Below, piece by piece: positions 5,424 through 15,697 of a stretch of DNA of 64,000 bases. The notes beneath the pieces were generated by a model, which was given only the letters and a program-made list of their open reading frames with translations, searched no databases and was not told where the DNA came from. The DNA lies in assembly GCF_011067745.1 (NCBI RefSeq), contig NZ_JAAMPJ010000014.1, forward strand, positions 248,001 to 312,000. The letters run 5' to 3'. The stretch is from Lentzea alba. Its GTDB lineage: Bacteria; Actinomycetota; Actinomycetes; Mycobacteriales; Pseudonocardiaceae. Positions within the stretch are counted from its first letter, which is position 1. Each line of letters begins with the position of its first letter. The position numbers and the translations under genes were made by a program.

Positions 5424-5548
5424 TGGAATCCCCGGTTTCTCCACACCCGGCTCGAACGGGCCGGTACGACCAGGGGCTTCTGCACCACTTGGTTTGAGTA
5501 CTCGCGTAGCCGGGCCCGTTTCATCACCTCTCGCTCCACGCGGCCGGT

Positions 5549-5566
5549 TGCGTCAACGTTGACGTA
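5549..5566. promoter_or_regulatory. LacI-type operator, just upstream of the importer genes
   Basis: TGCGTCAACGTTGACGTA holds the perfect 14-bp palindrome CGTCAACGTTGACG (5551-5564). It ends immediately before the AGGAGGAG ribosome site of the binding-protein gene, so a bound repressor would block transcription at or just past the start point. Confidence 0.75.
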
Positions 5567-5575
5567 GGAGGAGTC

Positions 5576-6595
5576 ATGTCGCGCAGAGCGTTCGGGCTGA
5601 CGGCGGCGGCGTTGCTGACGCTGGCCGCGGCGGCTTGTGGCAACGGCGGTTCGTCGGGTGGTGGCGCCACGCTGGTCGGCCTGGTCACCAAGACCGACAC
5701 CAACCCGTTCTTCGTGAAGATGAAGGAAGGCGCGCAGCAGGCGGCGTCCTCGGCGGGGGCGACGGTGCAGTCGTTCGCGGGCAAGCAGGACGGCGACAAC
5801 CAGTCGCAGGTCGACGCGATCGAGAACCTGATCGCCTCGGGCGCGAAGGGCATCCTGATCACGCCGAGCGACTCGAAGGCGATCGTGCCGTCGGTGGACA
5901 AGGCGCGGGCGGCGGGGCTGCTGGTGATCGCGCTGGACACGCAGCTGGAGCCGGCGAGCGCGGCGGACGCGACGTTCGCGACCGACAACTACAAGGCCGG
6001 GTTGCTGATCGGGCAGTGGGCGAAGGCGAAGTTCGCCAAGGACGGCAAGCAGGCCAAGATCGCGCTGCTGGACCTCAACCCGAACCAGGTGTCCGTGGAC
6101 GTGCAGCGCGACCAGGGTTTCCTGGAGGGCTTCGGCGTCGACGTGAAGGACAAGAACAAGATCGGTGACGAGTCCGACCCGCGGATCGTGGGCCACGACG
6201 TGACCAACGGCGACCCCGCGGGTGGCCGCACGGCGATGGAGAACCTGCTGCAGCGCGACCCCGGCGTCAACCTGGTCTACACGATCAACGAGCCCGCGGC
6301 GGCCGGCGCGTACGAGGCGTTGAAGGCCGTGGGCAAGGAGAAGGACGTCGTGATCGTCTCGGTCGACGGCGGCTGTCCCGGCGTGAACAACGTCAAGGCC
6401 GGGGTGATCGGGGCGACCTCGCAGCAGTACCCGCTGAAGATGGCGCAGCTGGGCGTGGAAGCGGTCGCGAAGTTCGCCAAGGACGGCTCCAAGCCGCAGA
6501 ACACCGACACGGGCGTCACGTTGATCACCGACCAGCCGGCCGACGGGGTGGAGTCGAAGGACTCGGCGTTCGGCCTGCAGAACTGCTGGGGCTGA
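5576..6595 (+). CDS. Sugar ABC transporter substrate-binding lipoprotein (ribose/fructose type)
   Basis: A 339-residue type I periplasmic-binding-fold protein. It has a lipoprotein signal peptide with the lipobox AAAC at about residue 21, followed by a Gly/Ser linker. The body shows the features of RbsB/FrcB-like proteins: [15 protein letters not shown], a [12 protein letters not shown] stretch, and [11 protein letters not shown] in the hinge region. It would capture a monosaccharide outside the cell for the permease and ATPase that follow. A strong AGGAGGAG site precedes the ATG, and a LacI-type palindrome sits directly before that. The single-domain ATPase partner is more like the fructose system Frc than ribose Rbs; the exact sugar is inferred. 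Confidence 0.86.
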
Positions 6596-9604: not shown

Positions 9605-12600
9605 CTACAAGGGCACGGCGTCCAAAGCCTTGTAGATGCGCTTGTCGCTGACGGTGTACCGCGTCCCGATGGTCTGGGCGAAGTACGACAGCCGCAGTTC
9701 CTCGATCATCCAGCGGATCTCGTCGAGCTCCGGCGCGGGTTCGTCGGCCGGGGTCTGCGCGCGCAGTTCCCGGTACTCGGCGTGGACCTGGTGGACCTTG
9801 CCGGTCCAGTCGAGGTCGCGGCGCGGGTTCTCGGGCAGTTTCTCGATGCGCCGGGAGATGCCTTTGAGGTAGCGCACGAGGTCGGGCAGCCGGTCGTAGC
9901 CGGTGTGGGTGACGAATCCCTTGTACACCAACGAGTTGAGCTGTGCGCGGATGTCGGCGACGGAGTCCGGTGCGCCCTTGAGCCCGGTCAGTTTCAGCTC
10001 GGCCTCGTGGGCGGCTTCGAGGACCTTGCGGACTTCCTGCACGACGACCCAGGTGGTGTCGTTCAGCGCGGCCTGGACCTTCTTCAGTTGCGCGGCATAG
10101 CTTCGAGCGTCCCACGCGGGTTCGCCCATGAGCCGGTCGACGGCGGCCATGATGCAGTCGGACAGCAGGTTCGCGACGCCGCCGTGCGGGTTGCGGGTCA
10201 GGGCGAGCTTGGCGGCGTTGTCGAGGTGGCGTTGCAGGTGTTTGACCGGTGAGTTGATGCCCAGCAGCAACAACCGGCGCACGCCGCGGCGGTGGGCGTA
10301 GGTCTGCCGGCCGGGGGTGTCGAGGACCTTGATCGCAACCGCGGAGCCGTGGTCGACGAGCGAGGGGTAGGCGGTGACGGTGATACCGGACTGCCGTTGC
10401 TCGATCGTTTTCGGCAGGGCGTCGAAGTCCCAGGTGGTGAGCCCGGTGCGTTCGAGGTGGCCGGCGGCCTGGCTGAGCGACTCGCGGACCTCGTCGCGCA
10501 GTTTTTCCTTGAGCGCGGCGATGTCCTTGCCCTCGGCCAGGGTGCGGTTCTGCTCGTCGACGACCTGGAAGGTGAGCTTGAGGTGGTCGGGGACGGCGTC
10601 GAACTGCCAGTCCTCGCGCTGCACGGTGACGCCGGTGAGTGCCCGCAGTTCGCGTTCGATGCCGCCGAGCAGGGACGTGTCGGCGGGTGTGAGGCGGGCG
10701 AGGACGGCGGTGGCGACGTCGGGGACGGGCACGAAGTTGCGGCGCAGCTGTTTGGGCAGCGACCGGATCAGCGCGACGACGAGTTCGTGGCGCAGGCCGG
10801 GGATCTGCCAGGAGAACGCGTCGTCGTCCAGGGTGGTGAGCGCGGGCAGCGGGAGTTGGACGGTGATGCCGTCCTTCTTGGTGCCGGGCTCGAAGTGGTA
10901 GCTCAGCGGCAGCGTGAGTTCGCCTTGGCGCCACTGGTCGGGGTAGGCGTCGGGGCTGACGTCGGCGCGGTCGTTGACCAGCATTTCCTTGGTGAAGGTC
11001 AGGAGGTTCTTGTCCTTCTGCTTCTTCCACCAGGAGTCGAAGTGCCGCGCGGAGACGACCTCGGCGGCGACGCGCTGGTCGTAGAACTCGTAGAGGGTTT
11101 CCTCGTCGACGACGATGTCGCGGCGGCGGGCGCGGTTCTCCAGTTCCTCGACCTCGTCGAGCAGGGCGCGGTTGGTGTGGAAGAACCGGTGGTGGGTGGT
11201 CCACTCCCCCTGCACGAGGGCGTGGCGGATGAACAGCTCACGGCTGAGTTCGGGGTCGATGCGGCCGTAGTTGACCTTGCGGCCGGCGACGATCGGCACG
11301 CCGTAGAGCGTGACCTTCTCCAGGGCGACGACGCTGCCGCGTTTGGTTTCCCAGTGCGGTTCGGAGTACTGGCGTTTGACGACGTGTTCGCCGAGGCGTT
11401 CGGCCCATTCGGGTTCGATCTTGGCGACGATGCGGCCCCACAGGCGGCTGGTCTCGACGAGTTCGGCGGCCATCACCCACTGCGGTGGTTTCTTGGCGAG
11501 CGCGGAGCCGGGGAAGATCGCGAACTTGGCGTTGCGGGCGCCGAGGAACTCGGTGAGGGGGCGGCGTTTCTCGCCGGGGGCCTGCTTTTTGAGGACGTCC
11601 TGGACGCCGATGTGGCTGAGCAGACCGGACAGCAGGGCGATGTGGATGTTGCGGGGGTCGCCGGGCTGGTCGGCGGGGTGCAAGCCGATCTGCTTGGCGA
11701 CCTGGCGCAGCTGCAGGTAGATGTCCTGCCATTCGCGCACGCGCAGGTAGTTGAGGAACTCGTTCTTGCACAGTTTGCGGAACTGGTTGCCGCTCAGCGC
11801 CTTCTGCTGTTCCTTGAGGTACTGCCACAGGTTCAGGAAGGTGACGAAGTCGGATTCCTTGTCGACGAACCGGGCGTGCTGCTGCGTGGCGGCTTCCTGG
11901 TGGTCGGCGGGCCGTTCGCGGGGGTCCTGGATGGACAGTGCCGCGGCGATGATCATGACTTCTTTGAGGCAGCCGGTGGTGTCGGCTTCGAGCACCATGC
12001 GGCCCAGGCGCGGGTCGACGGGCAGCTGGGCGAGCTTGCGGCCGGTCGGGGTGAGTTTCTGCTCCGATGATCCCTTCTGGGCGGCGTTGAGGGCGCCGAG
12101 TTCTTGGAGCAGGCCGATGCCGTCGTTGATGTTGCGCGAGTCCGGCGGGTCGATGAACGGGAACTTCGCGACGTCGCCGAGGCCGATGGCGGTCATCTGC
12201 AGGATGACGCTGGCGAGGTTGGTGCGCAGGATCTCCGCGTCGGTGAACTCGGGCCGTGCCTCGAAGTCCTCTTCGGAGTACAGGCGGATGCAGATGCCTT
12301 CGCTGACGCGGCCGCAGCGGCCCTTGCGCTGGTTCGCGGACGCCTGCGAGATCGGTTCGATGGGCAGTCGCTGGACCTTGAGGCGGTGGCTGTAGCGGGA
12401 GATGCGGGCGTTGCCGGGGTCGATGACGTACTTGATGCCCGGCACGGTGAGGCTGGTCTCGGCGACGTTGGTGGCGAGCACGATCCGGCGGCCGGTGTGG
12501 CGCTGGAAGACGCGGTGCTGCTCGCCGACGCTGAGCCTGGCGTAGAGCGGGAGGATCTCGGTGTTGCGGAGGTCTTCTTGTTTGAGGGCGTCGGCGGTGT

Positions 12601-13486
12601 CGCGGATCTCGCGTTCGCCGGACAGGAACACCAGGACGTCGCCGGGGCCTTCGGCCTGCAGTTCGTGGACGGCGTTGATGATGCCCTGGGTCTGGTCGTC
12701 GTCCTCGTCGAGCGGCCGGTAGCGGGTCTCGACGGGGTAGGTGCGGCCGGAGACCTCGATGATCGGGGCGTTCTCGAAGTGCTGGCTGAAGCGTTGCGGG
12801 TCGATCGTGGCGGAGGTGATCACGATCTTGAGGTCCGGGCGGCGCGGCAGCAGCTGTTTGAGGTAGCCGAGCAGGAAGTCGACGTTGAGGCTGCGTTCGT
12901 GGGCCTCGTCGATGATGATCGTGTCGTAGCGGCTCAGCGTCCGGTCGGTCTGGATCTCGGCGAGCAGGATGCCGTCGGTCATGAGTTTGACCAGGGTGTC
13001 GTCGCCGGACTGGTCGGTGAACCGGACCTTGTAGCCGACGGCGTCACCGAGTTTGGTGCCGAGCTCCTCGGCGACGCGTTCGGCGACGGTGCGGGCGGCG
13101 ATGCGGCGGGGCTGGGTGTGGCCGATCTGGCCGGTGACGCCGCGGCCGAGCTCCAGGCAGATCTTGGGCAGCTGGGTGGTCTTGCCGGACCCGGTCTCGC
13201 CGGCGACGATCACGACCTGGTGGTTCGCGATCAGCTCTTTGATGCCGTCCTTGTGCTGGCTGACCGGCAGTTCCTGCGGATAGGTGATCTTGGGAACGGA
13301 CTCCCGGCGCAGCTCGACCACGAGGGCGGCCTCGTCGATCTGGGCGGCGATCTCCTCGGTGATCTTCTTGCGGGCGAGCGGGTCTGTGACCCGGCGTACG
13401 CCGTCGAGGCGCCTGGCGAGCCGGCGTTGATCACGCGGCATGAGCTCGGGCAGGCGTTTGTGCAGTTCAGCGAGCGGGGTGTCCAT
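9605..13486 (-). CDS. hrpA: ATP-dependent RNA helicase HrpA
   Basis: A 1293-residue DEAH-box helicase, close to the 1300 residues of E. coli HrpA. Walker A is GETGSGKT (96-103), the DEAH box is D193-E-A-H196, motif III is SAT (VITSATID), and a QRKGRCGR motif VI follows. The ratchet/OB region and a long C-terminal DUF3418-like part complete the family layout. HrpA unwinds RNA and in E. coli helps rescue stalled ribosomes. The gene is divergent from the first DUF4240 gene with 75 nt between them. A TATCCT box lies 9 nt before the ATG, a plausible near-leaderless promoter. Confidence 0.93.
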   Translation of the reverse strand: MDTPLAELHKRLPELMPRDQRRLARRLDGVRRVTDPLARKKITEEIAAQIDEAALVVELRRESVPKITYPQELPVSQHKDGIKELIANHQVVIVAGETGSGKTTQLPKICLELGRGVTGQIGHTQPRRIAARTVAERVAEELGTKLGDAVGYKVRFTDQSGDDTLVKLMTDGILLAEIQTDRTLSRYDTIIIDEAHERSLNVDFLLGYLKQLLPRRPDLKIVITSATIDPQRFSQHFENAPIIEVSGRTYPVETRYRPLDEDDDQTQGIINAVHELQAEGPGDVLVFLSGEREIRDTADALKQEDLRNTEILPLYARLSVGEQHRVFQRHTGRRIVLATNVAETSLTVPGIKYVIDPGNARISRYSHRLKVQRLPIEPISQASANQRKGRCGRVSEGICIRLYSEEDFEARPEFTDAEILRTNLASVILQMTAIGLGDVAKFPFIDPPDSRNINDGIGLLQELGALNAAQKGSSEQKLTPTGRKLAQLPVDPRLGRMVLEADTTGCLKEVMIIAAALSIQDPRERPADHQEAATQQHARFVDKESDFVTFLNLWQYLKEQQKALSGNQFRKLCKNEFLNYLRVREWQDIYLQLRQVAKQIGLHPADQPGDPRNIHIALLSGLLSHIGVQDVLKKQAPGEKRRPLTEFLGARNAKFAIFPGSALAKKPPQWVMAAELVETSRLWGRIVAKIEPEWAERLGEHVVKRQYSEPHWETKRGSVVALEKVTLYGVPIVAGRKVNYGRIDPELSRELFIRHALVQGEWTTHHRFFHTNRALLDEVEELENRARRRDIVVDEETLYEFYDQRVAAEVVSARHFDSWWKKQKDKNLLTFTKEMLVNDRADVSPDAYPDQWRQGELTLPLSYHFEPGTKKDGITVQLPLPALTTLDDDAFSWQIPGLRHELVVALIRSLPKQLRRNFVPVPDVATAVLARLTPADTSLLGGIERELRALTGVTVQREDWQFDAVPDHLKLTFQVVDEQNRTLAEGKDIAALKEKLRDEVRESLSQAAGHLERTGLTTWDFDALPKTIEQRQSGITVTAYPSLVDHGSAVAIKVLDTPGRQTYAHRRGVRRLLLLGINSPVKHLQRHLDNAAKLALTRNPHGGVANLLSDCIMAAVDRLMGEPAWDARSYAAQLKKVQAALNDTTWVVVQEVRKVLEAAHEAELKLTGLKGAPDSVADIRAQLNSLVYKGFVTHTGYDRLPDLVRYLKGISRRIEKLPENPRRDLDWTGKVHQVHAEYRELRAQTPADEPAPELDEIRWMIEELRLSYFAQTIGTRYTVSDKRIYKALDAVPL

Positions 13487-13532: not shown

Positions 13533-13555
13533 CTGTCGGACCCGGCCGCTAGCGT
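13533..13555 (+). promoter_or_regulatory. RecA-NDp (PafBC-type) promoter of the first DUF4240 gene
   Basis: CTGTCGGAC (13533-13541), an 8-nt spacer, then TAGCGT (13550-13555), then 6 nt to the ATG. The published RecA-NDp consensus is tTGTCRgtg-N8-TANNNT. The core TGTCR and the N8 spacing match; the last two bases of the first box are AC instead of tg. The start codon falls where transcription should begin, so the mRNA is expected to be leaderless. Confidence 0.65.
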
Positions 13556-13561
13556 GGCGGC

Positions 13562-14125
13562 ATGGACACCGGGGGCTTCTGGAGACTGGTCGATCACGCG
13601 CGGGAGAAGGCGGTTGACCTGGACGAACGGCGGGCGTGGCTGTCCGGGCGGCTGGCGTTGTTACCGGCCGGTGAGATCGCCGACTTCGCGGTGCGCCTGG
13701 ACGAGCAGCGGCGGCGGGTGGACACGTGGGCGCACTGGCAGGCGGCGACGCTGATCTGCCGGGGCCTGTGCGGCATGGACTCGTTCTTCTACTTCCAGGC
13801 GTGGCTGATCGGGCAGGGCCGCGAGGTGTTCGAGTCGGTCGTGGAGTCTCCGGACGCGCTGGCGTCCCTGCCCGCGGTACAGCGCTTGGCGTCGGCGGAC
13901 TCCGGGGCGGATGAGGACTGGCCGGACTGGGAGGCGCTGTACCGGGTGCCGGACGCGGCGTTCGAGGCGGTGTTCTCCGGTGATCTGGACGAGGTGCTGG
14001 AGTCGCGGGGGCAGACGCGGGCGTCGGATGTGTCGCCGGGCGGTGAGGACGTGAAGATGGAGGATCCCGCCGACATCGCGTGCCGGATTCCGCGGTTGTG
14101 GGCGTTGTTCGGGAATACGGCGTGA
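13562..14125 (+). CDS. DUF4240-domain protein, copy 1
   Basis: A 187-residue cytosolic protein of the DUF4240 family, whose function is unknown. Family marks are FWRLVDHAR at the N-terminus, TWAHWQAATLICRGLCG, and the FFYFQAWLIGQGREVFESV block near residue 80, followed by the PDALASLP stretch. Copies 2 and 3 follow directly on the same strand and share these blocks, so this is a local expansion. All three have their own copy of the same promoter, which argues against a single operon and for shared control. The start is ATG 13562, where the -10 box is 6 nt upstream and there is no ribosome site. Confidence 0.82.
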   Translation: MDTGGFWRLVDHAREKAVDLDERRAWLSGRLALLPAGEIADFAVRLDEQRRRVDTWAHWQAATLICRGLCGMDSFFYFQAWLIGQGREVFESVVESPDALASLPAVQRLASADSGADEDWPDWEALYRVPDAAFEAVFSGDLDEVLESRGQTRASDVSPGGEDVKMEDPADIACRIPRLWALFGNTA

Positions 14126-14150
14126 TCGTCCGATCGGCGCACCCCGAAAA

Positions 14151-14173
14151 TTGTCGGACCCGCCCGATAACGT
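14151..14173 (+). promoter_or_regulatory. RecA-NDp (PafBC-type) promoter of the second DUF4240 gene
   Basis: TTGTCGGAC (14151-14159), an 8-nt spacer and TAACGT (14168-14173), then 7 nt to ATG 14181. It matches the sites at 13533 and 14790 in both boxes and in spacing. Confidence 0.68.
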
Positions 14174-14180
14174 CGTCGGC

Positions 14181-14762
14181 ATGGACCTCGACGTCTTCTG
14201 GGACCTGCTCGACGAATCGACACATTCCGCCTCTGACCAGCGGGAACGCCGTGCGTGGCTGACGTCGCGGCTGGCTTTGCTGTTACCGGGCGACATTGTC
14301 GGTTTCGAGGTGCTGCTGAGCGCGTCACGCGGTCGGGTGAACACGTTCTCACACTGGCACGCGGCTTATGTTCTGTGCGACGGCTTGTGTTCGGCGGAGC
14401 AGTTCTTCGCATTCCAGTCGTGGTTGATCGGGCTGGGCCGCGACGTGCTGGGGTCGGTGGCGTCGTGCCCGGACGCGCTGGCGGAGGTGCCGGCGGTGCG
14501 GACGTTGCTGGCGGTCGGGGCACAGTCGTGGCCGGATGCGGCGTGGCCGTTGTGGCCGGGACTGGAGCGGGTGCCGCGCGAGGCGTTCTTCGCCGCGACG
14601 GGCCGTTCGCTCGACCGGGCGCTGGCGATCTTGGGGTGTGTGCCGGTGACGGACGCGGGCCCGTTCTCGGGTCCGGTGTGGGATTTGGACTCGCCGGTGG
14701 AGGCGGCGGTGCGGCTGCCGCGGTTGTGGGAGCTGTCGGGTGGGCAGGAGAAGGCCGCCTGA
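14181..14762 (+). CDS. DUF4240-domain protein, copy 2
   Basis: A 193-residue DUF4240 protein. It keeps VFWDLLDES, FSHWHAAYVLCDGLC and AFQSWLIGLGRDVLGSV but is more diverged than copies 1 and 3 in the C-terminal third. There it lacks the acidic EDWPDWE-type stretch and reads PDAAWPLWPGLE instead. The start ATG 14181 is taken from the alignment with the other copies and the leaderless promoter; the longer open frame from 14151 would translate the promoter itself. Confidence 0.8.
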   Translation: MDLDVFWDLLDESTHSASDQRERRAWLTSRLALLLPGDIVGFEVLLSASRGRVNTFSHWHAAYVLCDGLCSAEQFFAFQSWLIGLGRDVLGSVASCPDALAEVPAVRTLLAVGAQSWPDAAWPLWPGLERVPREAFFAATGRSLDRALAILGCVPVTDAGPFSGPVWDLDSPVEAAVRLPRLWELSGGQEKAA

Positions 14763-14789
14763 CCTGGTCCGATCCGCGGGCGTCAAAAA

Positions 14790-14812
14790 TTGTCAGACCC
14801 CCTCGCTAGCGT
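14790..14812 (+). promoter_or_regulatory. RecA-NDp (PafBC-type) promoter of the third DUF4240 gene
   Basis: TTGTCAGAC (14790-14798), an 8-nt spacer and TAGCGT (14807-14812), then 7 nt to ATG 14820. Of the three copies it is the closest to the published consensus in the first box. Confidence 0.7.
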
Positions 14813-14819
14813 GCTCGGC

Positions 14820-15371
14820 ATGGACCTGAACGCGTTCTGGGCCCTGGTCGAGAGGTCGTCCGCGGAGACCTCCGGGCAGGACGAGCGGCTGGAGTGGCTG
14901 ACCGCCGCTCTGTCCGGCGCGGATGCGTGTGAGTTCGCGCTCCGGCTGGACGAGGTGCGGCGGCGGGTGGACACGTGGGCGCACTGGCACGCGGCCGACG
15001 TGATCTGCGCCGGGCTGTGCTCGGACGACGGGTTCTTCTACTTCCAGGCGTGGCTGATCGGGCTGGGCCGGGAGGTGTTCGAGTCGGTGGAGTCGTCACC
15101 GGACGCGCTGGCGGATCTGCCGCACGTCCGGATGCTGGCCTCGCGTGGTGGCGTGCACGCGTGGGCGGATGACGAGTGGCCGGACTGGGAGGGCCTCGAC
15201 TACGTGGCGGCCGAGGCGTTCGACGGTGATCTGGAGTCGGTGCTGGCCTCGCGTGGCGTGGAGGTGCTGGTGTCTCCGGATCCGTCCGGTGAGCAGTGGG
15301 ATTTCGCGGATCCGGCGGAGATCTCGGCCCGGATTCCGCGGCTGGGCGCGTTGTTCGGGAAGGTGGCGTGA
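14820..15371 (+). CDS. DUF4240-domain protein, copy 3
   Basis: A 183-residue DUF4240 protein very similar to copy 1. It shares FWALVERSS, DTWAHWHAADVICAGLC and FFYFQAWLIGLGREVFESV, then DEWPDWEGLDYV and a closing ARIPRLGALFGK that parallels CRIPRLWALFGN in copy 1. The start ATG 14820 sits 7 nt after the -10 box. The stop overlaps the next start by one base (TGATG), so the following small gene is probably translated from the same message. Confidence 0.82.
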   Translation: MDLNAFWALVERSSAETSGQDERLEWLTAALSGADACEFALRLDEVRRRVDTWAHWHAADVICAGLCSDDGFFYFQAWLIGLGREVFESVESSPDALADLPHVRMLASRGGVHAWADDEWPDWEGLDYVAAEAFDGDLESVLASRGVEVLVSPDPSGEQWDFADPAEISARIPRLGALFGKVA

Positions 15372-15697
15372 TGGACATCCCGGTGGATGTCGTGGTGTGG
15401 CGGGCTCCGGGGCCGGCGTCGTTGCCGGAGGCGGCGGCGCGGTATGCGGAGCTGCGGTCCTCGCCGCTGGGCGCGTTCGACACCGCGGTGGCGGCGTTCG
15501 TGCGCGAGTTGCGGCAGACCTCACCGGACCCGGCCTCGCCGGTGACGTGGAACGAGGCGCTGACGGTGGGCACGGACGCGGTGATCGTGCACGTGGTGTG
15601 GCCGGGTCAGCGGCAGGTGCTGGACCTGGTGGCGTTGCTGGCGGCGCGGCACGGTCTGGTGTGTTACGAGCCGGCCCGCCAGGTGGCGATGTCCTGA
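15371..15697 (+). CDS. Hypothetical small protein coupled to DUF4240 copy 3
   Basis: A 108-residue soluble protein with no family I can name. The second half looks like an alternating hydrophobic sheet (DAVIVHVVWPGQRQVLDLVALLAARHGLVCY). The ATG overlaps the stop of the preceding DUF4240 gene by one base, so it should be expressed with that gene from the damage-type promoter. Its last 34 nt overlap the convergent adenosine-deaminase-like gene. Confidence 0.6.
   Translation: MDIPVDVVVWRAPGPASLPEAAARYAELRSSPLGAFDTAVAAFVRELRQTSPDPASPVTWNEALTVGTDAVIVHVVWPGQRQVLDLVALLAARHGLVCYEPARQVAMS

What the first reader, a model, noticed from the sequence alone, without database searches (positions are those of the whole stretch)
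13533..15371. Three DUF4240 paralogues each with a DNA-damage-type (RecA-NDp/PafBC) leaderless promoter
Before each gene the sequence reads yTGTCRGAC, exactly 8 nt, TARCGT, then 6-7 nt to ATG. The layout equals the published RecA-NDp promoter (tTGTCRgtg-N8-TANNNT) used by PafBC in mycobacteria. The genes are tandem copies but the promoters are kept nearly identical while the spacers differ, which argues for selection on the boxes. This would place DUF4240, a family of unknown role, in the DNA-damage response, beside an RNA helicase gene. No database search was done.
Basis: partly seen in the sequence, partly recalled or inferred. Interest (0 to 1): 0.72.

Follow-up and report, generated by a model that had tools for sequence, protein, structure and literature searches.

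The report
DNA-damage promoters on DUF4240 genes
Three neighbouring bacterial genes of unknown job each carry their own copy of a switch that actinobacteria use to turn on DNA-repair genes, and many relatives of these genes carry it too, so this unnamed protein family probably takes part in the response to DNA damage.

Summary
Observation confirmed: TGTCRGAC-N8-TARCGT, then 6, 7 and 7 nt to ATG, stands before three DUF4240 genes; 3 matches in the window, none in 100 shuffles. Interpretation supported by comparison, untested by experiment. TGTCRGNS-N8-TANNNT occurs 85 times in this Lentzea-like genome (reversed control 7). Of 34 non-DUF4240 genes starting 4-11 nt behind it, 30 were scanned and 18 are replication/repair families, including RecA, UvrB, UvrC, PolA. 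Overlapping PafB-like and PafC genes exist. Among 80 kept relatives (of 470), 36 DUF4240 genes have the strict box at spacing 8, none at 12 other spacings; 1 of 780 other ORFs there has it. A wider set of 122 gives 20 versus none. A 39-row clade, probably Streptomyces, lacks it. The helicase neighbour is kept only in Lentzea and Umezawaea. The protein model is all-helical (pLDDT 96.8) without PDB match. Best reading: PafBC-activated, leaderless, DNA-damage-inducible genes; biochemical role unknown. No paper in the library searched holds the word DUF4240.

The parts
13534..13555 (+). RecA-NDp/PafBC-type promoter 1: TGTCGGAC (13534-13541), N8, -10 TAGCGT (13550-13555); 6 nt to ATG
13562..14125 (+). 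DUF4240 paralogue 1, 187 aa
14152..14173 (+). RecA-NDp/PafBC-type promoter 2: TGTCGGAC (14152-14159), N8, -10 TAACGT (14168-14173); 7 nt to ATG
14181..14762 (+). DUF4240 paralogue 2, 193 aa
14791..14812 (+). RecA-NDp/PafBC-type promoter 3: TGTCAGAC (14791-14798), N8, -10 TAGCGT (14807-14812); 7 nt to ATG
14820..15371 (+). DUF4240 paralogue 3, 183 aa; modelled structure all-helical, mean pLDDT 96.8
15371..15697 (+). 108-aa ORF whose ATG shares one base with the stop of paralogue 3, probably co-transcribed with it (inference); found in all 13 Lentzea loci (in one as two pieces); no Pfam, NCBIfam or PADLOC match; model of low confidence
9605..13486 (-). HrpA-type DEAH helicase (DUF3418, HA2, OB domains), divergent neighbour; not judged part of the unit

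Best explanation
Each DUF4240 gene has its own PafBC-dependent (RecA-NDp) promoter. After DNA damage, single-stranded DNA activates the PafB-PafC dimer; the dimer joins RNA polymerase-sigmaA, reads the TGTCRGAC element (about -26) in place of a -35 box, and transcription starts at or within a base or two of the ATG, so the mRNA is leaderless. The third unit probably also carries the 108-aa ORF. DUF4240 is thus an accessory effector arm of the actinobacterial DNA-damage response, acting without a widely conserved partner gene, and kept as separately promoted paralogues. SHOWN here: boxes, exact spacing, position, enrichment at DUF4240 genes in several genera, boxes of the same kind at repair genes of this genome, presence of PafB/PafC homologues. 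INFERRED: PafBC binding, damage induction, start point, leaderless translation. The protein's biochemical activity is unknown; my guess is an enzyme or binding protein using the conserved polar residues S68, D69, D70, R84, D95 and E124.
For: Exact boxes at all three genes. A fourth DUF4240 gene of the genome (C29) has TGTCAGAC-N8-CAAGCT and a GTG 7 nt on; the fifth lies directly behind it without a box. 85 genome-wide matches versus 7 for the reversed pattern. Of 36 listed genes starting 4-11 nt behind a match, 29 start at 6 or 7 nt; 34 are not DUF4240, 30 of these were Pfam-scanned, and 18 are replication/repair families: RecA, UvrB, UvrC, PolA, two NAD ligases, UvrD-like, SMC_N (RecN-like), RNase H, RecQ, SbcD, RadA-like, DnaN, DnaX, DinG-like, two PDDEXK_1, RNase_T (the '-like' names are my reading of the Pfam domains). 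recA, uvrB, uvrC and polA carry the TGTCAGAC form. PafB-like (WYL+WCX) and PafC (HTH_PafC 6e-44) genes overlap by 4 nt. Relatives: 36 of 80 strict at spacing 8, 0 at 12 other spacings; 20 of 122 versus 0; 1 of 780 other ORFs. On the tree the box label needs 25 changes, at least 13 forced by starred branches. Gene neighbourhoods mostly differ between genera while the box stays. In two genomes that are probably Streptomyces the motif with YANNNT is found 185 and 193 times against 41 and 43 in the reversed control. Papers: consensus tTGTCRgtg-8-TannnT (PMC5656591, passages); PafBC acts through RecA-NDp (PMC6789036 and PMC8223512, passages); -26 element and ssDNA activation (PMC11804915, passages); a RecA-NDp gene reported UV-inducible in Streptomyces coelicolor (PMC5087735, passages).
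Against: No expression or binding data. Under the strict rule 44 of 80 and 102 of 122 DUF4240 genes lack the box; some have near forms by eye (for example GATACT or GATGCT at the -10 place), but a clade of 39 rows has none and the five relatives from outside actinobacteria (or unplaced) lack it. If only two of the three -10 letters are asked for, the spacing control is less clean: 44 of 80 at spacing 8, but 21 at 10, 12 at 5 and 7 at 11; 22 of 122 at 8, 6 at 10, 5 at 5. Many boxes in the Streptomyces and Micromonospora relatives have CANNNT, not TANNNT. The element ends in AC where the mycobacterial consensus has TG. [quoted passage not shown] smegmatis PafBC motif is not conserved in S. venezuelae (passage). 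12 of the 30 scanned genes behind such boxes have another family (8) or no Pfam match (4), so a box alone does not make a repair gene.
Confidence: 0.85

Rival explanations
1. The boxes are real and regulated, but by another factor that reads a similar element, such as ClgR or another WYL-domain activator of this genome, so the signal need not be DNA damage.
For: PMC5656591 recounts a report that ClgR recognises the same promoter (passage). Eight PafC-HTH matches, most of them weak, exist in the genome. PMC10693628 describes a further WYL activator answering genotoxic stress in mycobacteria (title and start of abstract).
Against: The TGTCRGAC form stands before recA, uvrB, uvrC, polA, one of two ligase genes and a radA-like gene here, and only one gene matches HTH_PafC strongly (6.5e-44, next 4e-6).
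Confidence: 0.1
2. The promoters are copies left by tandem duplication and act as ordinary weak leaderless sigmaA promoters; DUF4240 has no link with DNA damage.
For: The three genes are tandem paralogues (47-57% identical); -10 boxes of the TANNNT kind are common at leaderless actinobacterial genes (general knowledge, recalled).
Against: A fourth paralogue on another contig, and relatives in Umezawaea, Allokutzneria, Actinokineospora, Embleya, Microtetraspora and Streptomyces (Micromonospora with one mismatch), also have the upstream element at exactly 8 nt, mostly in different gene neighbourhoods; the strict box is at no other spacing.
Confidence: 0.04
3. Chance resemblance in GC-rich DNA.
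For: The loose layout is expected 0.53 times per window, and 4 of 100 shuffles reached three matches.
Against: 0 in 100 shuffles for the exact form; spacing and neighbouring-ORF controls.
Confidence: 0.01

Closest known systems
RecA-NDp / PafBC-dependent promoters of mycobacteria (recA P1 and the PafBC regulon)
   Same: TGTCR element, 8-nt spacer, TANNNT -10, sites before repair genes, PafB/PafC homologues in the genome
   Different: The upstream element is TGTCRGAC(C) rather than TGTCRGTG; the target is DUF4240, for which no genome of family f8 (probably Mycobacteriaceae, inferred) is among the 69 genomes with a match; induction untested
SCO6735 macrodomain gene of Streptomyces coelicolor (RecA-NDp promoter, reported UV-inducible; PMC5087735, passages)
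   Same: A gene outside core repair, linked to DNA damage through a RecA-NDp box
   Different: Unrelated protein; for DUF4240 no experiment was found
Pfam PF14024 (DUF4240)
   Same: All three proteins score far above the family cut-off
   Different: Pfam names it a protein of unknown function and the paper library searched does not hold the word; its regulation is the new information

Membership tests
RecA-NDp / PafBC promoter | TGTCR(GTG) element | tested here: met
   TGTCRG present in all three; the last two bases are AC, not TG, but recA, uvrB, uvrC and polA of this genome have the same form
RecA-NDp / PafBC promoter | exactly 8 nt then TANNNT | tested here: met
   strict box at no other spacing among relatives
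RecA-NDp / PafBC promoter | -10 placed so that transcription starts at or next to the start codon (my addition; not checked as a defining feature in a paper) | tested here: inconclusive
   6-7 nt gap fits; start sites not mapped
RecA-NDp / PafBC promoter | pafB and pafC encoded in the genome | tested here: met
   WYL+WCX gene overlapping an HTH_PafC gene by 4 nt; a neighbouring pafA was not identified
RecA-NDp / PafBC promoter | PafBC occupancy and RecA-independent induction by DNA damage | not testable with these tools
   needs ChIP and expression data
PF14024 DUF4240 | profile score over the curated cut-off of 27 bits | tested here: met
   114.7, 82.1 and 115.1 bits
LexA/SOS regulon | SOS-box-like palindrome near the genes | tested here: not met
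   a simple GAAC-N4-GTTC-type scan of the window found sites only near 663, 35089 and 60946; weaker boxes would be missed; consensus recalled
Known anti-phage defence proteins | match to a PADLOC model | tested here: not met
   no match up to E 1 for paralogues 1 and 3 or the 108-aa ORF; paralogue 2 not scanned

The most novel reading that the evidence does not exclude
DUF4240 is a so far unrecognised, patchily distributed effector family of the actinobacterial DNA-damage response: a compact helical fold not matched among solved structures, with a conserved polar site, placed under PafBC control in many lineages and multiplied as independently promoted paralogues, acting directly on damaged DNA, on nucleotides or on a genotoxin.
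Probability: 0.35. Interest if true: 0.75.

Novelty: new member of a known kind. Interest (0 to 1): 0.55.

Why it matters
It gives a first, testable biological setting for a domain of unknown function and suggests that PafBC targets outside mycobacteria can be read from sequence. PMC9380542 leaves open whether such a response exists in Streptomyces (passage); the boxed Streptomyces DUF4240 genes offer reporters for that question, and their CANNNT -10 suggests that a search with the mycobacterial consensus alone may miss sites. As no genome of family f8 (probably Mycobacteriaceae) is among those with DUF4240, the well-studied mycobacterial regulons would not have shown this.

Tried and rejected
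Link with the RNA helicase: rejected; hrpA is divergent and lies beside DUF4240 in 15 of 80 loci, all Lentzea or Umezawaea. Conserved partner genes within about 6 kb: none that is widespread; apart from the family itself one cluster covers 3 genera (8 loci) and eight cover 2 genera. Fold relatives: Foldseek against PDB and viral models gave nothing at E 0.001 or better (best 1.7 and 1.6); a profile search of PDB sequences gave 0 up to E 1; all 54 aligned members match DUF4240 in Pfam, other families only weakly in one or two members. NCBIfam: none for paralogues 1 and 3 and the 108-aa ORF. Phages: one partial hit of 33% identity in 50,697 records; plasmids: 9 of 72,556 records, 8 Streptomyces and 1 Nonomuraea. 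The 108-aa ORF: model of low confidence (pLDDT 70.4), no match at E 0.001.

Rows left out before counts: the 122 genes are the 129 distinct matches minus seven weak or partial ones (G115, G231, G250, G038:C23, G015:C1:5777040, G077:C11, G045:C39). The 80 loci are the best of 470. The tree has 187 of 202 rows after short, stop-holding, four hand-picked doubtful (L177, L193, L203, L210) and identical rows were dropped; it is a FastTree tree with many open forks, and its box label uses the relaxed rule (5 of 6 letters). Four of 34 leaderless genes were not Pfam-scanned (L011, L031, L042, L085). ORFs come from a simple script, not a gene caller, and the start-codon windows differ slightly from those used for DUF4240. 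Only passages, abstracts or search listings of papers were seen, none whole.

Full report
WHAT IS THERE. The window carries three tandem DUF4240 genes at 13562-14125, 14181-14762 and 14820-15371, all + strand and all PF14024. Before each stands TGTCRGAC, 8 nt, TARCGT, and 6, 7 and 7 nt to ATG. The exact pattern is found three times in 64 kb and in none of 100 shuffles. The looser published layout finds the same three sites only, with 0.53 expected and 4 of 100 shuffles reaching three.

THE GENOME. The nearest named relatives are Lentzea (92% identity, L. kentuckyensis), so the window is from Lentzea or close to it (inference). TGTCRGNS-N8-TANNNT occurs 85 times in the 10.2-Mb genome against 7 for the reversed pattern. 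Thirty-six matches have an ORF of at least 100 aa starting 4-11 nt downstream, 29 of them at 6 or 7 nt; 34 are not DUF4240. I scanned 30 of the 34: 18 are replication or repair families, among them RecA, UvrB, UvrC, PolA, two NAD ligases, RecQ, SbcD, a RecN-like SMC_N protein and DnaX; 8 have other families and 4 have no Pfam match at the limit used. The TGTCAGAC form before DUF4240 paralogue 3 is the form at recA, uvrB, uvrC and polA here, so the AC ending looks like a lineage form of the element rather than a departure from the regulon. PafB-like and PafC genes overlap by 4 nt on contig C29.

OTHER DUF4240 GENES OF THE GENOME. There are five in all. The fourth has TGTCAGAC-N8-CAAGCT and GTG 7 nt on; the fifth lies immediately behind it without a box. 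So all four head genes have the element, three with the full TANNNT.

RELATIVES. From two family searches (101 genomes of the order, 26 with DUF4240; 394 of the class, 69 with DUF4240) I examined 122 of 129 genes: 20 have a perfect TGTCRG and YANNNT at spacing 8, and none at spacings 3-7 and 9-15; with one mismatch allowed in TGTCRG, 30 against 0 or 1. A second search in named genomes kept 80 of 470 relatives: 36 perfect at spacing 8 and none at the other spacings; relaxed, 45 against 0 or 1. When only two of the three -10 letters are required the control is less clean (44 at spacing 8, 21 at 10, 12 at 5, 7 at 11; 22 at 8, 6 at 10, 5 at 5), so the case rests on the full box. In the same 80 loci 1 of 780 other ORFs has the perfect box at spacing 8; Fisher p 4.5e-40, which ignores kinship between rows. 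On a tree of 187 proteins (73 with the relaxed box) the label needs 25 changes, at least 13 forced by starred branches, and one 39-row clade, all of family f33 (probably Streptomyces), has none. Gains and losses cannot be told apart, but the box is neither a single local accident nor a family-wide trait. Few neighbouring genes are shared across genera: apart from DUF4240 itself, one cluster in three genera and eight in two.

FOOTPRINT IN LENTZEA. Of 28 DUF4240 copies found in 13 Lentzea and 2 Umezawaea loci, 25 keep the box; box columns average 1.88 bits, the 8-nt spacer 1.32, upstream 0.62, downstream 0.56. The exceptions are one L. nigeriaca copy whose two boxes are 10 nt apart, one fragment that is probably the rest of a boxed gene, and one Umezawaea copy with TGTCGT.

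MECHANISM. From the passages read: PafBC activates through RecA-NDp, is switched on by single-stranded DNA, and acts on RNA polymerase-sigmaA through a -26 element. Counting from a -10 hexamer at -12 to -7, the TGTCRGAC element falls at -28 to -21 and the start falls on or next to the ATG (my arithmetic). I therefore infer leaderless, PafBC-activated transcription of each paralogue. A UV-inducible Streptomyces gene with a RecA-NDp box is a precedent. Against this stand the lack of expression data, the CANNNT -10 in many Streptomyces relatives, and a report that an initial search did not find the mycobacterial motif conserved in S. venezuelae. On the other side, two genomes that are probably Streptomyces hold the motif (YANNNT form) 185 and 193 times against 41 and 43 in the reversed control.

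THE PROTEIN. AlphaFold2 gives a confident all-helical model of paralogue 3 (pLDDT 96.8, pTM 0.91). No solved or viral structure matches at E 0.001 or better, nor any PDB sequence. Across 187 relatives W7, D70, F72, G83, P94, D95, E124 and P173 are each kept in at least 92% of the rows with a letter there, and S68, D69 and R84 in 89%. This hints at a functional site; what it does is unknown.

NOVELTY. The promoter type and regulator are known; the target family is new to it as far as I could search. The word DUF4240 is in none of the 5.39 million open papers held, and a search for PafBC with Streptomyces and regulon listed 14 papers, none with DUF4240 for the same reason; most subscription papers are not in that library.

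Noticed in passing
L322-L328 (own genome; contigs C1, C12, C29, C31): A dispersed repeat of about 64 nt (7 places, 82-100% identical over the matched part) joins, in 6 of 7, a PafBC-type box with CTGAGTA to a strong hairpin (GCAGGGGT...ACCCCTGC, -28.9 kcal/mol); at least three copies lie inside long open frames. It looks like a small mobile or regulatory element carrying a damage-type promoter.
   Followed up: partly
L027, L072, L073 (own genome): Three WGR-domain proteins (Pfam PF05406) follow PafBC-type boxes at 31, 43 and 41 nt, so DNA-damage control may extend to WGR proteins.
   Followed up: partly
L120-L147 and others, the 39-row clade: This DUF4240 lineage (family f33, probably Streptomyces) has no PafBC box but a different recurring upstream stretch (GCGTGCG ... 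GATGCTGG ... GTGATGGACGAGACG, by eye).
   Followed up: no
window 15371-15697: A 108-aa ORF overlapping the stop of DUF4240 paralogue 3, found in all 13 Lentzea loci and in none of the other 67 at E 0.001, without any family match.
   Followed up: partly
L218 (Lentzea nigeriaca) about 5426-6020: Both DUF4240 copies look damaged: one has a changed box spacing and low identity, the other a frame break near its start.
   Followed up: no
L008, L012, L020, L037, L074, L077 (own genome): Non-repair genes also start 6-7 nt behind a PafBC-type box: a lectin-domain protein, a glyoxalase-like protein, a protein kinase, a GyrI-like protein, an ABC ATPase, an AraC-type regulator.
   Followed up: no
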